64,000 bases of DNA from positions 43,445,001-43,509,000 of the forward strand of contig NC_060214.1 in assembly GCF_021130785.1 (NCBI RefSeq). The letters run 5' to 3'. The position numbers were made by a program, and so were the translations under genes. The notes beneath the pieces are model-generated. The model did not search any database, was not told the origin of the DNA, and saw nothing but the letters and a program-made list of their open reading frames with translations. The DNA comes from Homalodisca vitripennis (Eukaryota > Arthropoda > Insecta > Hemiptera > Cicadellidae). Positions 6,190 through 61,178 of this stretch are shown here, piece after piece; the first letter of the stretch is position 1, and each line of letters opens with the position of its first letter.

Positions 6190-6225
<36 letters not shown>
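6156..6225. repeat. (TA)n microsatellite abutting a transposon end
   Basis: Interrupted TA run lying directly against the left end of the 6228-8853 element. Tc1/mariner elements target TA, so the tract may be the insertion site or may have expanded from the target duplication. Confidence 0.95.
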
Positions 6226-6227
<2 letters not shown>

Positions 6228-6228
<1 letters not shown>

Positions 6229-6806
6229 AGGGTGAGTCATGAAATATGGTAAAATATTTTAAGAGACGTGATTCTAGAGCTAAAAATAAGAAAAAAAGTG
6301 TTATATGAAGGTATAGGTCCGGAAAAACGCTCCATTACTGAGTAATGGCTGGCGAAAGATTTTGCTTTGTTTTCAGTTCACCTGGTGAAATTAAGTGATT
6401 CTGAAAGGTTTTGTTTTTACTTTTTAACTCAAATAAGATGGATTCTTAAAGGAAATCACCTGAAATTGGAAAAAATTCAAAATAAAAACCACTCTAGATG
6501 TTGTAAAAGTGTGAACAGTTTTTTGTGAAAAAGTATAAAATTTGCCAAAAAAATCGAATAACAAAAATACCGTCTTAAATGTTTGATGTCGATAACATTG
6601 TTAGATGACCAATAAACAAATTGTTTTTTCCTAATACAGATTGAAGTGAATTTAATTCTGAAAAAAAACAACCATAATCAGCCGCAAAGTTAACTAAATG
6701 TGTAAAAAATTTTATGAAATTGACTCCTCACACGTATTACACTACACAGCACAATTTTTTGCTGTTTTATAATAAGGAAATGAGTATCTGATTGGTAACA
6801 GATGGT
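6228..6806 (+). repeat. Left long TIR of the 6228-8853 element
   Basis: Inverted match to 8256-8853. Shared landmarks include TTTCACCTGGTGAA-like and AAATAAGATGGATTCTTAA segments and an ACAAATTGTTTTTCC block. Similarity fades just inside the GGTAACAGATGGTACC region. Confidence 0.9.
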
Positions 6807-8255: not shown

Positions 8256-8853
8256 CAGCATGTTACCCATCAGATAATCATTCCTTATTATAAAACAGCA
8301 AAAGTTTTGCTGTGTAAGTGTAATACGTAAGGGAGTCAATTTCATAACTTTTTTTACACATTTAGTTTAACTTTGCTTATTATGGTTATTTTTTCAGAAT
8401 TAAATTCTCTACAATCGGTAATAAGGAAAAACAATTTGTTTATTGGTCATCTAACAATATTTATTCGACAATCAAACATTTAAGACGTATTTTTTGATTT
8501 TAGTATTTTTTGATTTTGATTTGAGTATTAGATTTTTTGGCAAATTTCATACTTTTTTTCTCAAAAAATTTTCACACTACAACATCTAGTGGTGGTTTTA
8601 TTTGATTTTTTCAGGTGATTTCCTTTTAAGAATCCATCTTATTTGAGTTAAAAAGTAAAAACAAAACCTTTCAGAATCACTTAATTTCACCAGGTGAACT
8701 GGAAAAACAAAGCAAAATCTTTCGCCAGCCATTTATCAGTCATGGAGCGGTTTCCGGACCTACCTTTCACATAAAACACTTTTTTTCTTATTTTTAGCTG
8801 TAGAATCACGTCCTTAAAATATTTTACCATATTTCTTTTTCTGACTCACCCTG
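8256..8853 (-). repeat. Right long TIR of the 6228-8853 element
   Basis: Reverse-complement counterpart of 6228-6806, ending GACTCACCCTG before TATATATAC. Confidence 0.9.
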
Positions 8854-10040
8854 TATATATACTACTATGAGAAGTTTAATATGATATTAATATGCACCTG
8901 TAATATATTAGTGTGTACTTTACACTGATTCCCAGTTTTTCTTGGTTCGTTCAACAACAAAAAAAAACTTTACATAAGAAACAGGTAGTTCAAATGCCAT
9001 GTAATCATCCTCCTACCTAGGAGCTTTCTACAATCAACACAATCATATTTTTGTCATTTACGCTACCCGTTGCCGTGGACTGTAAAACTATTCTGCCCGT
9101 AGCCCGGAATCCTGTGCTTGAGTACATTACCTGTAGTTATAAGAATTATATATTTTTTATTATTTTAAGTATCTATTTTAAGAATGTTTACCAAAAAAAC
9201 GTTTCCACCTAATAATTTTTTGTCATCGTCCAGACAATTTTTTACACATAGTATAATATAATTCATAAACTATTATGAAGCGCTATTTGTCATATCATCA
9301 TAAGGTATTTAGAGCTAAAGTCATTTAATACAAGCATTTTTCTTGAAGTCTGCACAAATTAAATTAATTCTTTTTATACAGTGAAATGTTATATTAGTTA
9401 GTCCCGAGTCTGTTAAGTATGTATATTAACTCAACCACGGAATCCCCTCAAGGCAAAAATACCTCCCAAAATTTGCATTTCTGTATTCCATCATGTAGCA
9501 GGTTCCCATCATGTATGTTCATTTCAATGCTTTTATGGAACTAAATTTTATCTCTATTTTTAAAAAGGAATGGAAACAATGCATCGCTAATAATGAGCTT
9601 ATGTATTTGATAGAGAATTAAGTAATATTATCATCAATGTCTTCTGGTTCTTTCACTGCTTAAAAATATTATGATCTTTTTTTCAAAGGTTTTTGACATC
9701 GAATCGCTGTGGAAATACTACAACACCGAAACTGCTGCCAAAAATTAATGAAGTCATCTGCTTAGGATACATGAAGGGGTGGAGCTTTCTCGTGATTGAT
9801 TGAAAGCATAAACAACTACCCGAGACTACTTTCTGAGCTTTAGCAAAAGCCCATCAGCCCTTGGGACTGAACAAATGTTTAAGAAGACTAAATTTAAAAC
9901 TATAAGGTTTTTACGCAAAGGATTTAAAATGTATAAAAATAGCAAAAAATATAATAAAAATGTCTACTTGTAATCAATATCTGTGTAACAAGAAAATAGT
10001 TGATTATTGATATATTTTTTATTAGTAAATTGTTCTAACC
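8854..10040. other. AT-rich non-coding stretch
   Basis: No supported gene or named repeat. A somewhat GC-richer patch at 9060-9130 is unassigned. Confidence 0.5.
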
Positions 10041-15325: not shown

Positions 15326-15327
15326 TA

Positions 15328-15662
15328 GTCCGGTCAATTTTGACATTGAACCTTGCAAAAATTCCCAGAAAGCTGAAAATTTGTATAGATGTTAGGGACA
15401 CCATTGTTATGAAATTGTGAAAAGTCCCCATCTATCCCATGTCCGCAAAATTTTATATTCAAGGTCAAATTTCACAAAAATAGGATTTTTGAATTTTTCA
15501 GCTAAACGGTTAGTTTTATGAAAAAATATTTCAAACAAAATTTGTAGATCATGCAATTATCTACAGAAATGCTCCTTATGCTTTTTTTCATAACACTAAC
15601 CATTTTTGAGAAAAAACCATTAAAAAATTTTCTTAAGCTGTATTGTCTATAATATGGACACG
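15328..15662 (+). repeat. Left TIR of the 15328-18090 element
   Basis: Inverted match to 17757-18090, including GCTGAAAATTT, TTGTAGATCATGCAATTAT and GCTGTATTGTC landmarks. Confidence 0.9.
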
Positions 15663-15879
15663 TTTCCATGCCACCTATGAGGTAGTGTACCTAGCGCGAT
15701 TTTTTTAATGTGGTTTCCCCGGTAGGCATATTCCACAGTCTATTCCAGTAAAATTTAATGAATCTTTGGTTATTCTTCTTCTTTTCAGTCGTTGCACTCA
15801 TGTTAGAGTGGTAGTTGTCGATCAAGTATAGCTCGAGTGACAAGTCCCGTTATACTTGGCTGTAAACATATTTTATTCA

Positions 15880-17465
15880 TCATTATTGTCACTAATTATT
15901 TCCTCTTCTTCCCCTCCATCTTCTTCTCTCTCTCTATTTTCTTCTTCTTCCTCATCTTCTTGAGTAGACGTAAATTGCACTAACAGCGATACATCAGTTG
16001 TTTCGTCGTTCATGTAAAAATCTTCTTCTGTTGGAGATTTAACATTTGAACACGATTGGCCTTGACAAGTGGTGCACGCTAGTGAACAAAATAATTCTAC
16101 TTTTTTGCAGCCGCATCCTAAGTTACACCCCTTTTTGCAATTGCAAAAAACAGAATTAAGGAGGTTTTCTGGTGCAGGTTAAAGAAGTGTGTGGGTTGGT
16201 TCCAATGCATTATTGACATCCTTCCAACCCCATTTTTCTGGGTCTAGTTGTTTACCAAGCCACACCTGAACCTAGTAATATACAGGATAAAACTGTTGGT
16301 GAGCGGAAGCTGCGATTGGAGGAAGGCAAACTAATTGCACACGTTTTTTAATACGTTTTTGTTTTGCAAAAGATAAGTAACGTAATTTGTCTATAAAAGT
16401 AATTTTTTGGAGCTCCATATACAGACAGAAGAAAGCGAATTTCTGGTGAAGAGTTGATATCTTGGAAAGCTTGTACACAATTAATAAAAAACTTTTTGGT
16501 TTACCCCTTCGAACATTGCCGATGTTTTATCACAGCCAGTCATAAGCATGTAAAACCAGTATATGATTAAACCGATTGATTATCTTCCCGAATAATTGCT
16601 GCCACAGTTTATAGGGCCTTCATTGATCTTTTTTGCCTTTAGGTTTTTTCAATCTAAGCTTGATTGATAATATCATGATAATTAACAAGAAAACATACAA
16701 TGTTAATTGTCCTTTTTCTGAGTAATAATGACTATATTACTATAATTTAACTTCAACCGTAATTTAATTTTTCTGTTATCAACACTTACGTTTTTACAAA
16801 TATTTTCTAGTTCTTCTAACGTAAACTGGCAGTCACCACTACTTTCAATAAATATGAAAATATTTTACCCTATGGCGAGATACAATGCTTCATCTTGAGG
16901 ACGGCCGACTTAGCCTCCAGTGGTCGTCTTTAAAAATGATACAAAACAATTATTATGGTACTTAGCTTCAGCATTAACTAAATCGTGTTCAAACTCGATG
17001 CGAGCAACAATAGTTTTTGCTGTGTCAACTGAACGAGACTGAGCTGCTTTCATAACTGAGTCTTTAAATGAAAGAGTTCTAACGTAAAAAAATTTACGAC
17101 GAGAGATCTATGCCGCCGCAAAATAAAGACAAATTTTTAAAAGAAAAATATGACTCACTTACATGTGCTCTCATGTGCTTACAGTACGAGGAGGACTTTT
17201 TGAGAGGTACTAACTGATTCCTCTTCATGTTGCCGTTTTGCTGCTGTAATTGTACTCTTTCTATTGTATTGTTTGCGACACTGCACATGATTAGTCGCTG
17301 AATTTACATTCTTCAAGTAATCAGTAAATTGATTCCCCCCTTGAATACTCACGTTAAGTAACGTCTTCATGCCGCGATCAACAATAACACATTCGCTTGA
17401 AGATAAAAGTTTAGTGCAAATAAAACACTCTTGCGACAAATTTGAGTGAATACAGCACAAAATTT
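15880..17465 (-). pseudogene. Transposon ORF: N-terminal Cys motif, central GCDxTS motif, C-terminal Cys-rich and acidic tail
   Basis: Minus-strand order, with frame changes. First, a Cys-containing N-terminus (CFICTKLL, then HVQCRKQYNRKSTI, about 17430-17250). Second, DLVNAEAKYHNNC near 16990, then VGRPQDEALYLAIG and QFTLEELENICKN near 16900-16800. Third, FYMLMTGCDKTSAMFEG near 16550. Fourth, LRYLSFAKQKRIKKRVQL and LPPIAASAHQQFYPVYYQ at 16440-16270. Fifth, DPEKWGWKDVNNALEPT near 16240. Sixth, FCNCKKGCNLGCGCKK and FCSLACTTCQGQSC at about 16150-16050, and an acidic Glu-rich tail to 15880. This layout recurs in uncharacterised insect repeat-associated proteins (family knowledge, name unknown). 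Several in-frame stops mark this copy as dead. Function is not assigned; a transposase role is inferred from its place between TIRs. Confidence 0.72.
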
Positions 17466-17756
17466 AACAGAGAATATTTGAAATATCTACGGGTTTTCAC
17501 TATGAAGGAATTTTCAAGACTAACGGTGATTTAGGTGCGACCTCAAGAAAAGCAAGTGGACGGAACGGTCACTCGAACATTGGAATGACAGGAAGATGTT
17601 GTTCAAAGGGCACATGGTCCCTTAAAATTAGGGACTCCGTTTTTTTAATATCATATTCTCAAAATTATCGGTCAATATGAATGTATTAGTCACGCAGACT
17701 TTTAGTTTTACTTATATTACACGCTAAATAATATCATAGGCAGCTTAGTCGTGCTT

Positions 17757-18090
17757 ATTATGGACAATACAGCGTAAGAAAGTTTGTAACTGTTTTTTCT
17801 AAAAAATGGCTAGTGTTATGATAAAAAGCATAAGGAGCATTTTTATAGATAATTGCATGATCTACAAATTTTGTTTGTAATATTTTTTCATAAAACTAAC
17901 AGTTTCGCTGAAAAATTCAAAAAACCTATTTTTGTGAAATTTGACCTTGAATAAAACTTTTTGCAGACATGGGATCGATGAGGACTTTTCACAATTTCAT
18001 AAAAATGGTATCCCTAACATCTATGAAAATTTTCAGCTTTCTGGGAATTAATGCAAAGTTACCCCTATTTTTTGGCTAAATTGACCGGAC
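17757..18090 (-). repeat. Right TIR of the 15328-18090 element
   Basis: Reverse-complement counterpart of the left TIR, ending ATTGACCGGAC before TA. Confidence 0.9.
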
Positions 18091-18594
18091 TAAAATAGAG
18101 TTTATTTATTTTATGTTGTTATTTATGATATATTTGTAAAGTTTTTAAATAATTGTCATCTTTGTGTATTACAATAACAATTCGTATACAAGCAAACAAT
18201 TAATTACAGATTTTCAAGTAGAAATTTTGCAAATTCGGCCTATTGCAACTATTCTTCGATCTGTAGGGTCTTTTTTGAAATAGCTGCACCTCCAGATTCA
18301 AAAACCATCCCGTACCATGTACATATATATGCTATATGACAAGGGTTGTGGAAACGATAACTACCCTATAAAATTAAAAACACAAAAAAGATTTGTGTAA
18401 AAATATAGTTTATAAATAGCTCGTTTATTTATACTTCTATACAATTTTGTTCTAACGGGGGCCGTAAATTTTTGAATAGAGAAAAAGTAATACGTGTTCT
18501 GGAATACATACATGTGTTCTTAACTTTAGGCAGTTATAACCGTCCATATCTCGTTTTCGATGAAATGTGATTTCTACGAGAAATAAATTATTAC

Positions 18595-21359: not shown

Positions 21360-22398
21360 GTATTTTATTTAACGTATTGTTGTTTGCATTCATTAGTTGA
21401 CTGTATATTTGCACTTTTACATCTGATATACTATATGGGGTGTATTTATCACAGTTCAAATTTGTATCACAGCAGGGGTGATTCTAGTTATTTCTATCTT
21501 TTCCAAAAGTGAAACATATAATATGATAAGAGTAATATTGCTATGATGTAATGTTGAAAATGTATATGATAGAGTATTTTTTTCAATGATACTACTAACT
21601 AAATCGGGAAATATATTCCGATTGCATACCGTATGTAACTTTCAAAGGTTGGTAGCTTTGCAAACATGGGAGAGATAAGGGAGATTGCAGATATTGGAAT
21701 ATCTGTTAACACCCTGTTTGGTTTCATCATAGCACTTGTAATGGAAATGGGTTGCATTGAGAAGTATTTGTAGCTTAGTGTAATGAATGTCAAAGTGTTA
21801 CGTGGGTGATCAACATGTGAAGTTTCCGTTGTTCAGGTTTCTAGAATTGAGGTTTATTACTGTTAGTCCAGTCAAGGACCACTTTCCGTGTATTTATCCC
21901 ATAAAGCACCGTTTTTCATAAATATTTTAAAATCTAACCTGTGGTGGTGGATGCCACTTTTTTCGAGGGTGAGCAATTTTTAATTAAACATAAGTACGGA
22001 AATCGATAAATTGACCAGTCATAAGCAACTTTTGTTTTTCATGACAGTCATTAGTTTTCGCCTTATTCACCAGTGAAATTGTTGGTTTTTAGGCAAAATC
22101 ATGCTTTCAGATGGTTTTCTTAATGTAAAAATATGCATTTTCATTTACATAATCGAAAACTGCTAGAGAGTAAAATTATAGCTTATAAAAACAACAAATC
22201 ATGTATTTATGATATATGTAGACCCAATACAAATGGAATTATTATTGCTTGATGAAAGTTGATTGTCACTCTTAAACCCCAAAATGGAAATTTTCTACAT
22301 TCAATAGCTAAAAACTAACGAACTTTTCGGGGAAAATACTTAGTTATTTAAAAAAATTTCTTTTTATAACAGTTCCTAACATCAAAACTTGGAAAATA
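21360..22398. other. AT-rich non-coding stretch before the satellite
   Basis: No gene recognised. The 21850-22390 part is unusually free of ORFs and could belong to a non-coding repeat, but no partner copy lies in this window. Confidence 0.4.
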
Positions 22399-24270
22399 AT
22401 TGTTAAAATCTCACCCTCTCTTACACCTTGTTAGAAAAACAATCGCTGCTAGTTCACAATTCAATGTATTTATATACGTATAATACGTTCTTAGTGATTG
22501 ACGTTCTAATTGTTAAAATCTCACCTTCTCTTATACCTTGTTAGAAAAACAATCGCTGCTAGTTCACAATTCAATGTATTTATATACGTATAATACGTTC
22601 TTAGTGATTGACGTTCTAATTGTTAAAATCTCACCTTCTCTTATACCTTGTTAGAAAAACAATCGCTGCTAGTTCACAATTCAATGTATTTATATACGTA
22701 TAATACGTTCTTAGTGATTGACGTTCTAATTGTTAAAATCTCACCTTCTCTTATACCTTGTTAGAAAAACAATCGCTGCTAGTTCACAATTCAATGTATT
22801 TATATACGTATAATACGTTCTTAGTGATTGACGTTCTAATTGTTAAAATCTCACCTTCTCTTATACCTTGTTAGAAAAACAATCGCTGCTAGTTCACAAT
22901 TCAATGTATTTATATACGTATAATACGTTCTTAGTGATTGACGTTCTAATTGTTAAAATCTCACCTTCTCTTATACCTTGTTAGAAAAACAATCGCTGCT
23001 AGTTCACAATTCAATGTATTTATATACGTATAATACGTTCTTAGTGATTGACGTTCTAATTGTTAAAATCTCACCTTCTCTTATACCTTGTTAGAAAAAC
23101 AATCGCTGCTAGTTCACAATTCAATGTATTTATATACGTATAATACGTTCTTAGTGATTGACGTTCTAATTGTTAAAATCTCACCTTCTCTTATACCTTG
23201 TTAGAAAAACAATCGCTGCTAGTTCACAATTCAATGTATTTATATACGTATAATACGTTCTTAGTGATTGACGTTCTAATTGTTAAAATCTCACCTTCTC
23301 TTATACCTTGTTAGAAAAACAATCGCTGCTAGTTCACAATTCAATGTATTTATATACGTATAATACGTTCTTAGTGATTGACGTTCTAATTGTTAAAATC
23401 TCACCTTCTCTTATACCTTGTTAGAAAAACAATCGCTGCTAGTTCACAATTCAATGTATTTATATACGTATAATACGTTCTTAGTGATTGACGTTCTAAT
23501 TGTTAAAATCTCACCTTCTCTTATACCTTGTTAGAAAAACAATCGCTGCTAGTTCACAATTCAATGTATTTATATACGTATAATACGTTCTTAGTGATTG
23601 ACGTTCTAATTGTTAAAATCTCACCTTCTCTTATACCTTGTTAGAAAAACAATCGCTGCTAGTTCACAATTCAATGTATTTATATACGTATAATACGTTC
23701 TTAGTGATTGACGTTCTAATTGTTAAAATCTCACCTTCTCTTATACCTTGTTAGAAAAACAATCGCTGCTAGTTCACAATTCAATGTATTTATATACGTA
23801 TAATACGTTCTTAGTGATTGACGTTCTAATTGTTAAAATCTCACCTTCTCTTATACCTTGTTAGAAAAACAATCGCTGCTAGTTCACAATTCAATGTATT
23901 TATATACGTATAATACGTTCTTAGTGATTGACGTTCTAATTGTTAAAATCTCACCCTCTCTTATACCTTGTTAGAAAAAACAATCGCTGCTAGTTCACAA
24001 TTCAATGTATTTATATACGTATAATACGTTCTTAGTGATTGACGTTCTAATTGTTAAAATCTCACCCTCTCTTATACCTTGTTAGAAAAAACAATCGCTG
24101 CTAGTTCACAATTCAATGTATTTATATACGTATAATACGTTCTTAGTGATTGACGTTCTAATTGTTAAAATCTCACCTTCTCTTATACCTTGTTAGAAAA
24201 ACAATCGCTGCTAGTTCACAATTCAATGTATTTATATACGTATAATACGTTCTTAGTGATTGCCGTTCTG
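22399..24270 (+). repeat. 110-bp satellite, 17 head-to-tail copies
   Basis: The unit begins ATTGTTAAAATCTCACC and ends TGATTGACGTTCTA. Counting phase through the array gives 15 units of 110 bp and two of 111 bp (units 15 and 16, with one extra A in the A-run), 1872 bp in total with no partial unit. Units 2-14 look identical. Unit 1 has CACCCTCTCTTACACC, units 15-16 have CACCCTCTC, and unit 17 ends GCCGTTCTG. Each unit contains the palindrome TATACGTATA. Variation confined to the array ends suggests recent homogenisation by unequal exchange, rolling amplification or conversion. No ORF spans the unit. Confidence 0.98.
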
Positions 24271-26655: not shown

Positions 26656-27650
26656 TAATAATAATAATAAACTTTATTGTGAACAGACAATGCACACATT
26701 GTATCACAATCGTCCTACCTAACCTAATCATTCATACTGACAATACCCCATTCAGACATACATTGTATCACTCACGCCTCTTTCACACGATTTACAGGCC
26801 CGGCAAATTTATTTGTTTTGATGGTTTTTGAGAATTTTAGGTTTTAATCATCCCAGCGACCCATCATAAGCTCACCAACTGAGTAAAATGCCCTCGAAAT
26901 TAAAAGAGTTTTCAACTGAGTTTTGAAATGTTTTCCATTTTGTTGTTTGGTGTGTTCAGGGAGACTATTGATCAATCTGACACCAACCTGGGATGGTAAA
27001 TTTCTGAACGCATTTGTCCTGTGCTGTTGGACGCGCAAGTTGTCCCTGCCTCTCGTCCCGTGTTGATGAACATCCCGTCCCCTAACCAAAGCACATCTTG
27101 ACACGGAGTAGAGGATAACCTCGAGAATGTAGAGACAGGGCAAAGTCAGAAATCCCAGCTCCCTAAACGCGCCTCTACACGACTCTCTATTGTTTAAATT
27201 CAAAATTATTCTTACGGCCTTTTTTTGGAGCCTGAAGACTCGCTCCAGCTTGTGCCCCAAAGTCTGATTTCATATCCCAAGTGGGGATAAATTAAACCAT
27301 AATAGGCCGTTTTTAATACCGTAATAGGGCAGTGCTTTGCCAAATTGCGAAGGGCAAAGATGCCCGATGCAACCTTGGCACAGACATGATCCACGTGAAC
27401 GTCCCAGGTTAGTCCTCGATCTAGGAACATTCCTAGGAATTTTGTTGATTCCATTTCATCGAGCGGGAGATCATCCACAAATACTGAAGGTCTTGTTTCA
27501 GATTCTCGTTTGCTTAGCGAAAATTTCATGAAATTTGATTTTGATTCATTTGTTTTCAGGTTAATTTCAGAAAAAAATTGAATGCAGTAATTCAACTCAG
27601 AAAAAGTAATTATTTCCAAGTTTTGAAGTGTTTTGGCTTTAACACAGAGA
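26656..27650 (-). pseudogene. Non-LTR retrotransposon 3' end: RT palm/thumb C-terminal part
   Basis: The minus strand starts near 27650 with LNYCIQFFSEINLKTNESKS, then SVFVDDLPLDEMESTKFLGM, GLTWDVHVDHVCAKVASGIF, and LKTAYYGLIYPHLGYEIRLW. It switches frame once near 27250 and continues with VFRLQKKAVRIILNLNNRES, then RGRDVHQHGTRGRDN, ending RAFYSVGELMMGRWDD. This is the C-terminal RT region common in insect CR1/Jockey-like LINEs. The 3' UTR follows and ends in AATAAAGTTTATTATTATT (26656-26671), a repeat-type tail. The copy is 5'-truncated with one visible frameshift, so it is fairly young. The related tail at 45690-46300 shares AFYSV.ELM. Confidence 0.88.
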
Positions 27651-27659
27651 ATTTGCTAA

Positions 27660-29879: not shown

Positions 29880-30480
29880 TTAGTGTTTTTCTTGAGGTGA
29901 TTGAGATATTTTGTAGCCGTGTGGTACATTAGGGGAAAAGGAGTAGAGGATTGCTGTCTCCAAATGTTTGTGAGAGTGAACATCATGATTGACAAGACTG
30001 TTGTTGAAAATATTGCAGTGTATCTCGATGACATCAACGGCTCTGAGATTGGGTGGATTCGATGCAATTACATTTTCATTTGAGTTGAAGTAAGACGATT
30101 CTTTTTGTAAGTTTGTTGCATCAGATTTTTCTAAACCTAAGAGATCACTAACGGTTTTATCCAAGTAGAATTTAATTGGAGAATTAATTGATATTTTGTC
30201 ACCATCTTTAAAGATCTTGAAATCGTCAGAATTTATACTAAGATTCAACGATTGTATGTAATCTCTGAAACTCTTTTCAAGTTTTTCAATGGTCCAGTAA
30301 CCACATTGAAGTATTAGTGGTTTCGGAATGAAATGTATTTCCAAGTCCCAAAAATAGACTTTTGCATGTTGCAACAAGTTTTATATGTTGTTCTCAGAGT
30401 AAAATCCAACAAGAGCCATATAATACTCTGCGTTTGGATCCAAGTGGATGGGGTGTTCCAGATGGAGAGTCAGTACAGAC
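29880..30480 (-). pseudogene. Polinton-type capsid-associated (penton/jelly-roll-like) protein
   Basis: On the minus strand the N-terminal part reads HPIHLDPNAEYYMALVGFYS, then a stop in ENNI-stop-NLLQ near 30382. A long open stretch follows (30377-29880) with KPLILQCGYWTIEKL, KFYLDKTVSDLLGLEK, DVIEIHCNIFNN, and SFSPNVPHGYKISQSP. The pattern of an xLxPxxxYxxALxxF start, a central LLGF/LLGLE, a V.CNI strand and F.PNVPPGYKI near the end matches a family common in insect Polinton-like elements. I take it as the minor capsid (penton) protein, which is inference. It stops before the usual C-terminal strand, and one nonsense codon is seen. Confidence 0.65.
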
Positions 30481-30997: not shown

Positions 30998-31412
30998 TTT
31001 TTTTGTTTCTTATATTACGAAGAATATGTTCCCAGTCCTCACCAGCTGAATCTCGTCGTAGAACCTCCAGGCACAGATGTCCACAGATAGGAGGATCATC
31101 AAACCCCTGAATATGCTCTGAGTTATAAACCAACACTTTTGGTTTATACCAAATACCTGACTACTTCTATTGGAGGATTGACATCGCCATATGAATCAAA
31201 ATAGATTTTCTTTTCACCACGTTTCACATAAAACGTCCAGTGAGTACCATCATATGAAAGGTCACCAAGATTTACAATACCACGTTCAATATTTGTAGGT
31301 TTGTCTGGAAGTAACTGTCGCATGAAAACACCTCTAAACTCATTAATGTTTAATATACCTGCTAATTTTTCTATTTCACCAAGAGACAGTGCGAAGATCT
31401 CTTTTTTTTATT
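30969..31412 (-). pseudogene. Adenain-like cysteine protease (Polinton PRO)
   Basis: The minus-strand reading begins LGEIEKLAGILNINEFRGVF (overlapping the end of the core-like ORF), then GIVNLGDLS, GTHWTFYVKRGEKKIYFDSY near 31250-31190, and CGHLCLEVL near 31090. The order His (GTHW), acidic residue (FDSYG) and Cys (CGHLCL) is the catalytic arrangement of adenovirus-type maturation proteases, which Polintons carry as PRO. All three catalytic positions are present. A frameshift near 31140-31155 separates the FDSYG half from the Cys half, so this copy is broken. Its stop at 30969 overlaps the next ORF by a few codons, as in compact viral-type gene blocks. Confidence 0.85.
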
Positions 31413-31875
31413 CACAGACACCAATGCATCAAGCTTCCGACCAATACGTCGTTTCAACCCTCTACCCGTAGGGTCTTTTTCAATAATGGCGTCCAACTCC
31501 TCATCGACTAAACTCTTTAACCAAGGTATAAATTTTTCTCTCAGTAAAGGAGCCACCTTTCTTCTTATTAATGGAGAGATGAAGCGTTTACCTCCAGGAA
31601 CTGACGAATACACCATTTTCATAATTTCCTTCAAAAACCCTCCTTGTTTATTAGATACGAGTTGGTTGTAACTTAGAAGCAATTGTAAACCTTTTTTGTT
31701 CTTAACAGCTCTAAAAACGGCTTTGTGTTGCTCTCCAGAAAGAAGTATACGATCACTTCCGTGAGACAACTGTTGATTAGATAATCTGATTACTGTAGGT
31801 TTCCGTCTTTTGTACGCTATACGAAGCTTACGTTTTTGAGCTTCGGATAGCCGAACTGTATAATTCTACTGAATT
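31371..31875 (-). pseudogene. Core-like basic protein of Polinton/adintovirus type
   Basis: The frame runs from about 31865 (NYTVRLSEAQKRKLRIAYKR, then RRKPTVIRLSNQQLSHGSDR) through LLSYNQLVSNKQGGFLKEI and a basic C-terminal half (GRGLKRRIGRK) to the stop at 31371. Two or three repeats of an LS..Q/LL..Q helix pattern followed by QGGFL are a hallmark of the pX/core-like small basic proteins in insect Polinton-like elements (recognised by pattern). The first ATG in the long frame is internal, and a stop lies just upstream of NYTV, so the natural start is uncertain. It probably binds DNA in the particle; this is inferred from charge and context. Confidence 0.65.
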
Positions 31876-38040: not shown

Positions 38041-38239
38041 AGTTACCGAGTTAGTAACTTCTGTGCTAAAGTTAAACAGCAGAAGCACATAGCAGATATG
38101 AGGCAGAACCCAGACTGTCTCTCTAGTAGAGGCGAACACTTCACCGGTTCTGACGTTCAAGAAGGAGAAGTAGGACTTGATAGTGACGTGACAAATAAGG
38201 AGAACATAACTGTCATCAGCTGATCGCAGTAGAAGTCAA
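38041..38239 (-). pseudogene. Duplicated partial copy of Gr exon 2
   Basis: About 199 bp match the 3' two-thirds of the exon at 38562-38836, with only a handful of substitutions, about 515 bp away in the same orientation and ending in the same phase-0 donor context (ACTCG|GTAACT). It lacks the exon's 5' third and acceptor, and has one base less at 38203-38210 (CACGTCAC versus CCATGTCAC), which shifts the frame. Just before the donor it reads ICYVLLLFNFSTEVTNS, which looks closer to the usual Gr transmembrane sequence than the NCYVLLVANSSTEVTNS of the longer exon. Confidence 0.8.
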
Positions 38240-38561
38240 ACTAAACTAATGAGGGTTATGTAGATTACTGCTAACTTTAATTCACTAAGCCTACAAATGA
38301 AGTAAGATATTATTGATAACGGCAATATTGGAATTCTGAACAGGAAATTTGTTAATAAAATAACGTTTTCCTACATAAGAAGTTTTTAAGAGTAACACTG
38401 TAGACTATTACGTATGTTGTGGATGAACACAAAGACGTTGTTCTGAGAGAAATACTCTTAATTAGTTTAACTATTATTGGCAAAACCTCTCTTAATAAGA
38501 CTTTTGTTGTATAGACAATTAGTTTATTCATAAACTATTATATTTCAACAAGATGAATTAC

Positions 38562-40963
38562 CGAGTTAGTAACTTCTGTGCTAGAGTTCGCTACCAGAAG
38601 CACGTAGCAGTTACGAGGCAGAACCCAGACTGTCTCTCTAGTAGAGGCGAACACTTCACCGGTTCTGACGTTCAAGAAGGAGAAGTAGGACTTGATAGTG
38701 ACATGGACAAATAAGGAGAACATAACGGCCATCAGCTGATCGCAGTAGAAGTCATTAGCCTGGTGTACGGCGTTACACCGCATCCAGTAGGTGTTCATCA
38801 GAGACTTCATTTTCATGATTTTGGAGAATATATTTTCTAAAATCATAGAAACAAACACTATTATATATACAAATAAAATTATAAATATTCAGTTATACCT
38901 AAAACGTCATAGTTTTGTATGAATTTCCATTACTTTTCCATTTCCTTTTGTGGCAATGCCTATTTGAAACCGGTGATCCTCGGTCATATATTTATTCTAC
39001 GCAGATGGGCGTAAAGCTTAAACTTCCCGAATTTCATTAGTGATTGATCTTTTATCAATCAATAGTGTATGGCAATATTACATTAATATCGGATAAATTT
39101 TTTTACAGATTCCACGGTAAAATGCTATCTCTATGTTTTGCCACTCGGGTAGCAGCATGCCATTCCATACAGGCTCTGCATGTACCACATGAGTCCCAGT
39201 AATATATTTAATTTCTTCTATTTATTGATATAAAATTCGTCTTCGAAAAGATTAAATTACATCCAATGACTATAAATACAGGCGTCACAAAAGGCAGCTA
39301 GTGACATCGTTATTATTTCCTATTTACAATGTATTAGTTACACTCAGGTTCTAATACTGATATAGGACATTATGCTACTGTTCTCTGTACAATTATGTTA
39401 TTCACTCTTATATTTTATTTGAAACTACTGTAAATATAGTACTTATATATTGTCTGAAACGCATTTTTTTAATGTTTTTAACAAGCTGAGCTCCAAAATA
39501 AAACAAGCATTAAAATAAAAATACTTCAGTTAACCCCCATTTAATATTCGATCCCTATTTTAATTATTAAGTTTTCATCAATTACAGTAAATAGTAACAA
39601 TATTTTTAATTTCCAAATTCATATTTTGAAACACTAACGAATTTGTGAATTTTCTAATACACAACCTGCATATTGTAAGTTGCCTACTGAGAGCAAACAT
39701 TTTATTGGCTCATGCTTTCAGGTAGATATAGTAGGATAAATTGCGTGGATAATGGAATACAGTCTTACACAGCTAAGATATTTTAGTAATCGTCAACTGC
39801 TAGTAACATAATTATTAGCCCCATCATAATTAGTAACCCTATTGTTTTAGATTCGATGGAAATGCTAAAATTTTTCGCAGATTCTTAATAAAACTTATTC
39901 CACTACTGGCTATTAGGATATTTGCTGAAATCTACGTTCGAAAATATATTAAAAATTACATTCATTTGCTAATAAAAATATTTAAATGAGATCCAATTAT
40001 AAGGAAATAAACAGCATCCAATTAATGTAGCTGTTGCAAAGCCTCAAAATAAGCATACATATTATAGAGCTGTGCATTGTTTAAATTTTTCTTTACTATC
40101 ACTTAATAAAGTATATGAGATTACATGACTATGCCACTAGGATTCGATAATTTTAATTTTAAGCATTTACGTACAACAATATATTTCAAGTTATTAAAGT
40201 TCCTTGCCATTTTCACGCAAACCCCCTTTAATTAATTAATTGATTCCCTGTAAAGAGGAGCATTGTATATTTAAAAAATGCAATAAGCGAACTTACGTCT
40301 TTTATGAATTGAATCGACATCAAGTGGATTATGGTTCATTTCAGTTAGTTGAATGATACATTTATTGATTTCCTCTTATATCTTTAAGTTGAGTATCCTC
40401 AAACCCATAGCGATATATTGAGCCACATTTGTAAAATGAAGGAGGAAGGCAAGTTCCGTACAGTTTATCAACATGATAGAGGTATAGTTTATCGCAAAGT
40501 AGTGTACCACATCTAGATCACTAATCACGAGGTTTACGAAGCCGATACTGAACAGTAAAGTTGATATGATGATGATCACGAAAACCTTTACTCGGGTCTT
40601 GTCCTCTCTTTTTGTGTACTGAAGATCTCGGTAGGCTCTCTGCAGGGTACTGAGGACGTCAATAATCTTCGGGTACTTCCTGGTGCCTGTGAAGAACGTT
40701 ACAGCCGCCACTGTCTGTAGAGACACAATGTCCAGAACCATTGCAAATTTAATAGTTCTACAGTTAGACATTTCTTTCATAGTGGTCATATAGAGGTCGA
40801 TGCAACAGAGTACTTCTTGCAGCAGGAATAACGCCAAACTCCTTATAAATCCTGTTAAGGAAAATGTGAGTCGCTTGATGTTCTTAGGTCCTGAAGTACT
40901 TTTCAATGGCAAATTTCCAAATAATCTTCCTATCCAAAGTATTGTATTTGGAAGATTATCCAT
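38562..40963 (-). pseudogene. Insect gustatory receptor gene (Gr), exons 1-2, one nonsense codon
   Basis: Exon 1 (40963-40297) starts at an ATG preceded in frame by TAA, and encodes NTILWIGRLFGNLPL followed by several hydrophobic segments, ending DVDSIHKRR with a GTAAGT donor in phase 1. Exon 2 (38836-38562) has a TTTTAG acceptor, supplies the missing two bases (joint codon CAA), and reads WMRCNAVHQANDFYCDQLM, then a membrane segment, then TNS before a phase-0 GTAATT donor. The topology, the DAV..AND.Y-like motif and the phase-0 3' intron are typical of insect Grs (odorant-type ligand-gated channels of sensory neurons). Exon 1 has TAA at 40376-40378, inside an otherwise intact frame. The last exons, with the TYxxxxxQF motif, were not found to the left. 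Confidence 0.85.
38840..40294 (-). other. Gr intron 1
   Basis: About 1.46 kb of AT-rich sequence between a GTAAGT donor and a TTCTATGATTTTAG acceptor. No nested gene recognised. Confidence 0.7.
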
Positions 40964-40969
40964 GGTGTG

Positions 40970-42522
40970 CGAATCCCAACGTTGGTGTTACGAAACCAAA
41001 ACTTACATAACAATTCCAGATGAAGTTATATACATTATTCATTATATTGATAAAATAGATTGGATTGCAGACTCTTTGAATAGGTTGGTAAAGATTGTTG
41101 GTTTGACCTCTATTGTTGAAAATCACTTCCAATAATTCTGTGATTGTTTTTGATCAATGAGAATTAAATATTCGACGAAGTAAAGCACGATGCTTTGTAT
41201 AAGGACAGTTACTATTTAATTATACAAAATTAATCTCGACATACATGAGGCAATACTGTTTTACAATAAACTTGAAATTTTACAGAACTAAAGTGAACAC
41301 AGAAGTAAGTGATTTATTACTAATAGAGTTATTATGTTTTATAATTTTATACAAAATTACAGAAATTTCATTGCAACTTTAATGAATTAAAAAATAAAAT
41401 AAAATATTTTTATTAACTATCAAAGAAAGATATACATTTTTATATGTACACTGTATGTAAGTGACTTGGCTGCACATATTATGATATGAATTAAAGCATC
41501 ATTCTACTCCTCTCTTATGATTGTATTTTTATTTACAGACCTCTAGCATTCAATTAAATGAAGATTTCATAAGCTCATTATTGAGGAAGAATCTGACGTA
41601 TTGAGTTTAATAAAGTCAAGTTCAATGTTGGTACTTAAACTATGTTTTCTGTTACTAATATCTGAATATTCCCTGTCTTAAGTTTTATTAGATAGGTTAT
41701 ATACAAGCTGTCTGCAACTTTATTCCTGATTGAATAGGATAATGAGAATAAAAATGTATAACAAAAGTAGATAGTGATTTAGAAATATTTTGTAAAGTTT
41801 TCTGTTTCTATATTTCGAATTTTATTTTAACTTTTAACGAGATCATGTTCTGTTATTTAGACTAACCATTAGCAGTTCTATAATTATTTGGAATATTATA
41901 TATTACTTTTAGTAAACTCGTATGTTAATCACAATATTAACTTCTACAGATTTACTAACTTGAACTTCATAAAAGGTAGTTTTACGATGAACAGAAACTA
42001 ACATGTTACTAAGATAAAAGGTTATCAACTCAGGGCCAACCATCCTGCAGCAGAATAAAAGGCTGATAGCAAAGCCAAACTGCCTGCTACTAAAAATCTA
42101 TGTATTAGCTAAAAGATCCTAATAACATATGCTTCTAACAGAAGTTTAATTTTCATGTTCTATGCTTAACTATGTATTGTGGACTTTGATTTAAACACTC
42201 ATTCTTTTTCTTGGGCGAATTGTTTTTAGACTTAAGTAATGTTTTTTAGAGTAGAAATGCTTTTTAAATAGGCTAATAATGCACACTGGACGAGATTATT
42301 TTGAATGATAAAAGCATAGAAATATAATATGTTAATAAATATACGGAGTAATGCTCTAATACTAATTAACTGTATTAGCTAACTTCACTACAACATTTTA
42401 TGTGAGAATAACATTGTTGTTCTATTAGTTTGGCAGCAAATTCATATTGGGTTTATTAATTTTTTAAATAACAGCCACCGCAATATATAATTTAACATAA
42501 AAAGTTTGATTTTTTCTTTTAG
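40970..42522. other. AT-rich non-coding stretch upstream of the Gr gene
   Basis: No promoter element can be called with confidence, and no other gene is seen. Confidence 0.5.
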
Positions 42523-60334: not shown

Positions 60335-60342
60335 ACCAAGCT
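60335..60342 (+). repeat. Target-site duplication, left (ACCAAGCT)
   Basis: Identical to 61171-61178 and directly abutting the fold-back element. Confidence 0.95.
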
Positions 60343-61170
60343 GGTAATTCTAAGCAATATATGGGTCAACCTCGATTTTTCTCATATCACAATATAATGT
60401 TCCAATAGTCAATTAGAAAAGGAAATGACTAGAATTCTTGCCGGAAAGCAGTTATAGGGAGCAGGCAACTCATATTACAATATGATGTTCCAATAGTCAA
60501 TTAGAAAAGGAAATGACTAGAATTTCTTGCTGGAAAGCAGTTATAGGGAGCAGGCAACCGCGAGAATTACCTATTAGTGATCAGGGGCACTGACGTGATC
60601 TGGGCTTCAAATTTGGAACTACTCGAGTTAATTTTTTTTTCTAAAAGAGCAAGCAGCGCGAAGCGCTGCGCAGCGGGCAAGCATCGTGCGTGATCTTCGT
60701 CTATACTGAATTGATTCAGGTCAAAGGAATGACACAGATTCCTTTACCAGATTTTTACGGAGATTTTGTATTGGGCGGATTATATTGGTTTACTTTGCTT
60801 TCCAGCATGTAATTATGTGTTTTAAAATTGTTTTACATACATTACCTACATTATATTGTAATATGTAATAACAATTTATCAGAAATTTTTAATAAAAAAA
60901 GGATCACGCACGATGCCTGCACGCTGCTCTTTTGCTCTTTTAGAAAAAAAATTAACTCGAGTAGTTCCAAATTTGAAGCCCAGATCACATCAGTGCCCCT
61001 GATCACTAATAGGTAACTCTAAGCAATATATGACCGTCTGGCGATTGCCTGCTCCCTATAACTGCTTTCCGGCAAGAAATTCTAGTCATTTCCTTTTCTA
61101 ATTGACTATTGGAACATTATATTGTAATAGAGAAAAATCGAGGTTGACCCATATATTGCTTAGAATTACC
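60343..61170. mobile_element. 828-bp fold-back/MITE-like element with 8-bp target duplication
   Basis: Termini GGTAATTCTAAGCAATATATG and the exact inverse at 61170 are flanked by perfect direct ACCAAGCT repeats. The two arms (about 60343-60700 and 60901-61170) are inverted copies with very high identity. The left arm has an internal tandem duplication of about 85 bp (copies near 60405-60489 and 60471-60560). Subterminal sequence includes CAGGGGCACTGA, a hAT-like word, and a second inward-facing copy of the terminal motif at 61012. A GCAGCGC-GAA-GCGCTGC hairpin sits at 60653-60669. Nothing is encoded. The 8-bp duplication fits hAT, P or Merlin/MULE-like mobilisation. Confidence 0.93.
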
Positions 61171-61178
61171 ACCAAGCT
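61171..61178 (+). repeat. Target-site duplication, right (ACCAAGCT)
   Basis: Perfect copy of 60335-60342. Confidence 0.95.

What the first reader, a model, noticed from the sequence alone, without database searches (positions are those of the whole stretch)
15328..18090. A TIR transposon carrying an uncharacterised Cys-rich/GCDxTS protein family
Seen: about 335-bp inverted ends (GTCCGGTCAATTT), TA at both borders, and a single decayed ORF with an ordered set of motifs: N-terminal C..C...CRKxY, AEAKYHNNC, MTGCDKTSAMFEG, LPP..A..QH-like, WGWK, and a CxCxxGCxxxCxCKK tail. I know this protein family only as a recurring uncharacterised insect protein. Linking it to defined TIRs and a TA-type target site would identify it as the likely transposase of a DNA transposon group that I cannot place in a named superfamily. 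It is the best candidate here for an undescribed system.
Basis: partly seen in the sequence, partly recalled or inferred. Interest (0 to 1): 0.75.

Follow-up and report, generated by a model that had tools for sequence, protein, structure and literature searches.

The report
Decayed Academ-like insect DNA transposon
A broken copy of an animal jumping gene whose intact relatives encode one large protein predicted to fuse a cut-and-paste transposase to a FEN1-like DNA-trimming nuclease; it most likely belongs to the already named Academ group rather than to an unknown system.

The parts
15326..15327 (.). TA bordering the left end (possible 2-bp target duplication)
   Evidence: sequence; control
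15328..15662 (+). left terminal inverted repeat (inner edge approximate)
15960..16568 (-). C-terminal part of the decayed ORF (end of the nuclease domain with the GCD motif, then the Cys-rich tail); matches P0017 residues 617-834
   Evidence: tblastn
16044..16145 (-). Cys-rich CXC-like tail CNCKKGCNLGCGCKK...CQGQSC
16505..16543 (-). MTGCDKTSAMFEG: the GCD site of the FEN1-type nuclease, the only one of its seven checked acidic positions left in this copy
   Evidence: alignment of relatives to EXO1
16569..16569 (.). approximate joint of the internal deletion (about 940 codons of relatives missing)
16570..17439 (-). N-terminal part of the decayed ORF; matches P0012 residues about 1-300 in several frames
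   Evidence: tblastn
16946..16972 (-). AEAKYHNNC motif
17756..18090 (-). right terminal inverted repeat (inner edge approximate)
18091..18092 (.). TA bordering the right end
   Evidence: sequence; control

Best explanation
This is a dead, internally deleted copy of an animal DNA transposon (about 5.6 kb when intact) of Academ (AcademX) type. Relatives encode one protein of about 1,400 aa: an N-terminal Cys/His-rich region with a possible winged helix, an RNase-H-fold DDE transposase with a helical insertion like that of P element and hAT, a FEN1/EXO1-like 5' nuclease with its metal-binding acidic residues, and a Cys-rich tail. Proposed working: the N-terminal and Cys-rich parts help bind the long TIRs (inferred); the DDE site cuts the ends and joins them to target DNA (inferred from fold and conserved D, D, E); the FEN1-like site cuts or trims 5' flaps or the non-transferred strand during excision or after insertion, which could set the length of the target duplication (inferred). 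This copy lacks the whole DDE core and six of the seven checked nuclease acidic positions, so it could move only if another copy supplied the protein.
Confidence: 0.75

Rival explanations
1. A transposon lineage distinct from Academ: the same DDE plus FEN1-type protein, but a separate superfamily with TA (2-bp) or about 9-bp target duplications.
For: TA/TA is exact at the ends (1.2% of random pairs), and the 9-mers CTTCAATAG and CTAAAATAG agree at 7 of 9 (1.6% of random pairs in any of six registers), while no exact 3-4 bp repeat exists. The transposase core resembles P element, recalled to make 8-bp duplications.
Against: One decayed copy; some exact 2-bp repeat occurs in 30% of random pairs. 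The protein content fits what is reported of AcademX.
Confidence: 0.13
2. The FEN1-like nuclease is not part of transposition chemistry; the family is basically a P/hAT-like transposase with an accessory or passenger repair domain.
For: No experiment shows that the nuclease is needed. One member of the listing, P0050, lacks part of the nuclease region between about residues 958 and 1196 of P0018.
Against: Seven acidic nuclease positions are kept in 75/79 to 81/81 of covering proteins, as well as the DDE positions.
Confidence: 0.07
3. The ORF is a host Cys-rich (CXC) gene fragment caught by chance between the TIRs of an unrelated transposon.
For: 14 of 102 rows are named Tesmin/TSO1-like CXC proteins; no second copy was seen at the DNA level.
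Against: Full-length relatives are themselves transposase-like, and both ends of the protein lie between the TIRs.
Confidence: 0.05

Closest known systems
AcademX lineage of the Academ superfamily (Repbase; founding paper Kapitonov and Jurka 2010 and AcademH paper Kojima 2020 are cited in papers seen, neither was read)
   Same: DDE/D transposon that encodes a nuclease (PMC10045372, PMC10294476 passages); inferred intact size ~5.6 kb against a mean of 5,565 bp for curated bivalve Academ elements; found in bivalves and in Bemisia, as are relatives here
   Different: Reported duplication 3-4 bp; here TA or an imperfect 9-mer in one decayed copy. No sequence comparison was possible.
P element transposase (Drosophila)
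   Different: 10% identity; relatives have an added FEN1-type nuclease and a Cys-rich tail; P element's THAP domain and 8-bp duplication (recalled) were not seen here
FEN1/EXO1/XPG nucleases
   Different: 14% identity; part of a larger transposase protein rather than a separate repair enzyme
Pfam DUF6589 (unknown function)
   Same: P0113 matches profile positions 138-361 of 410 at E 3.5e-6; P0111 at E 3.7e-6
   Different: 26.4 and 26.3 bits against a cut-off of 27; only 2 of 19 members of A4 match at E 0.1 or better

Membership tests
Academ (AcademX) | encodes a nuclease (XPG type is recalled; 'nuclease' is in PMC10045372) | tested here: met
   FEN1/EXO1/XPG fold in the relative P0036 and motif alignment; the window copy keeps only the GCD end of it
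Academ (AcademX) | DDE/D transposase core | tested here: met
   predicted fold of P0029, top 14 of 50 VIA rows DDE recombinases; conserved D, D, E. Foldseek alone not significant
Academ (AcademX) | terminal inverted repeats | tested here: met
   on this one copy
Academ (AcademX) | 3-4 bp target-site duplication | tested here: inconclusive
   no exact 3- or 4-bp repeat in six registers, but a single copy whose arms differ by about 9-12%
Academ (AcademX) | sequence homology to reference Academ transposases | not testable with these tools
   no Repbase or Dfam library on hand; the defining papers are not held
Academ (AcademX) | element size about 5-6 kb | tested here: inconclusive
   2,763 bp here; about 5.6 kb only by adding the missing ~943 codons in number; mean of 100 curated bivalve elements 5,565 bp
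P element superfamily | P-type transposase core | tested here: inconclusive
P element superfamily | N-terminal THAP domain and 8-bp duplication (recalled) | tested here: inconclusive
   no THAP among Pfam matches of P0006 and P0008; best 8-bp repeat 4 of 8, one decayed copy

The most novel reading that the evidence does not exclude
An animal-wide transposon lineage outside named Academ, in which a P-element-like DDE transposase and a FEN1/EXO1-like 5' nuclease work in one polypeptide, the nuclease making the non-transferred-strand cut or trimming the integration gap, so that the duplication is TA (or about 9 bp) instead of 3-4 bp.
Probability: 0.13. Interest if true: 0.7.

Novelty: new member of a known kind. 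Interest (0 to 1): 0.38.

Why it matters
It ties a recurrent uncharacterised Cys-rich ('Tesmin/TSO1-like CXC') protein of animal annotations to a transposase with a predicted fold, explains the GCDxTS signature as a FEN1-type metal site, and suggests that Pfam DUF6589 is a transposase core. Gene sets could be cleaned of such entries, and the role of a FEN1-like nuclease in cut-and-paste transposition becomes testable.

Tried and rejected
Own-genome copies: the genome search 'own' was asked 20 times with the same request and did not complete. Copy number, empty sites and duplications in other copies are therefore untested.

Relatives in viral or prokaryotic contigs: none confirmed by tblastn. 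A 20-mer shared by both arms had no exact match in viral contigs or genome contigs.

Literature: ten searches. 'DUF6589' is in 0 held papers. In one search, 0 of the 20 listed papers (of 22 found) holds 'XPG'. In one search, of 25 listed (of 69 found), only PMC10045372 holds 'AcademX'. Seen by passages, without an Academ protein architecture: PMC12730594, PMC11071193, PMC4455052, PMC8290104, PMC8594854. TA-target superfamilies (Tc1/mariner, Harbinger/ISL2EU) were considered only from the TA border; the two models gave no sign of them in the rows shown, which does not exclude them.

Full report
WHAT IS THERE. At 15328-18090 two inverted arms of about 335 bp face each other. Their outer 13 bases are identical (GTCCGGTCAATTT). 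The ungapped core is 282 nt at 91% complementarity, and the arms with the bordering TA align over 338 columns at 88% identity, E 5e-118. TA lies outside both ends. A blastn of the element against the window gave, besides itself and its two arms, only one 105-column match at 70% within the left arm, so there is no second copy in the window.

THE ORF. On the minus strand, 17439-16570 matches residues about 1-300 of the relative P0012, in several frames with stops, and 16568-15960 matches residues 617-834 of P0017, its C-terminal part. In P0018 numbering about residues 250-1192 are missing, some 940 codons. Adding them in number only (2,763 + ~2,830) gives an intact element of about 5.6 kb.

THE FAMILY. 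Two searches listed 11 and 102 proteins, together P0001-P0111. The longest is P0071, 1,396 aa. Named rows include beetles, moths and butterflies, bees, wasps, ants, aphids, whitefly, stick insect, spiders, mussels and clam, hagfish and Nematostella; many rows carry no name; 14 of the 102 rows are named Tesmin/TSO1-like CXC. Some rows are fused to other domains (P0010, P0042, P0063, P0090) and were left out of the alignments. Of the 111, alignment A2 used 53, A4 19 and A5 35. In the residue counts, 99 of 111 proteins (P0018 itself included) cover at least one of the 14 checked positions; the other 12 cover none.

MECHANISM. Shown: TIRs, homology, predicted folds, conserved residues. Inferred: the DDE site does end cleavage and strand transfer; the FEN1-like site handles 5' ends or flaps of the non-transferred strand or of the target gap; the Cys-rich parts bind DNA. 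The published remark that the nuclease- and the helicase-bearing Academ lineages differ in duplication length (3-4 against 9-10 bp; PMC10045372, passages) would fit a role of the nuclease in setting that length.

TARGET SITE. With the end at GTCC, TA/TA is exact. If the end is set one base further in, CTTCAATAG and CTAAAATAG agree at 7 of 9. Exact 3- or 4-bp repeats are absent in the six registers tried. In 20,000 random flank pairs of this window, TA/TA at that place occurs in 1.2%, some exact 2-bp repeat in any register in 30%, and a 9-mer with at least 7 matches in 1.6%. One decayed copy cannot decide.

NAMING. Papers seen by passages: PMC10045372 (AcademX 3-4 bp and AcademH 9-10 bp duplications, tied to nuclease and helicase), PMC10294476 (100 curated bivalve Academ elements, DDE/D, mean 5,565 bp), PMC9143410 (Academ in Bemisia tabaci), PMC10799480 (AcademH helicases in fungi). 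The AcademH paper is not held, and the founding Academ report was not seen; that the AcademX nuclease is of XPG type is recalled. No reference sequence could be compared. I therefore file this as most likely AcademX, with the duplication length inconclusive, and keep a distinct lineage as the rival.

VERDICT. A real transposon and the right protein, but probably a member of a superfamily that already has a name. The predicted fusion of a P-like DDE core with a FEN1-type nuclease, and the link to DUF6589, are the parts a specialist may find worth following.

Noticed in passing
22397-24269: Tandem array of a 110-bp unit, 17 copies, 99% matches.
   Followed up: no
6219-6800 and 8261-8861: Inverted pair, 83% over 627 columns, with CAGGGTGAGTCA-type ends next to TA repeats: perhaps another TIR transposon of about 2.6 kb.
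   Followed up: no
60342-60468 and 61045-61171: Inverted repeat of about 128 columns at 98%, unexplained.
   Followed up: no
38043-38238 and 38558-38754: Direct repeat, 93% over 197 columns.
   Followed up: no
26844-27655 (-): Two overlapping ORFs that by eye look like the end of a LINE reverse transcriptase (recalled); no Pfam match at E 0.01.
   Followed up: partly
29880-30380 and 31371-31865 (-): ORFs of 166 and 164 aa that by eye recall Polinton/Maverick-type proteins (recalled, not tested); no Pfam match at E 0.01.
   Followed up: partly
40376-40987 (-): ORF of 203 aa that by eye recalls an insect gustatory receptor; Pfam gives only a sub-threshold Terpene_synth_C match, E 0.0017.
   Followed up: partly
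relatives P0111 and P0113 (proteins, no locus): Matches just under the cut-off to Pfam DUF6589, collinear over 220 positions in P0113: this unknown domain may be an RNase-H-fold transposase core.
   Followed up: partly
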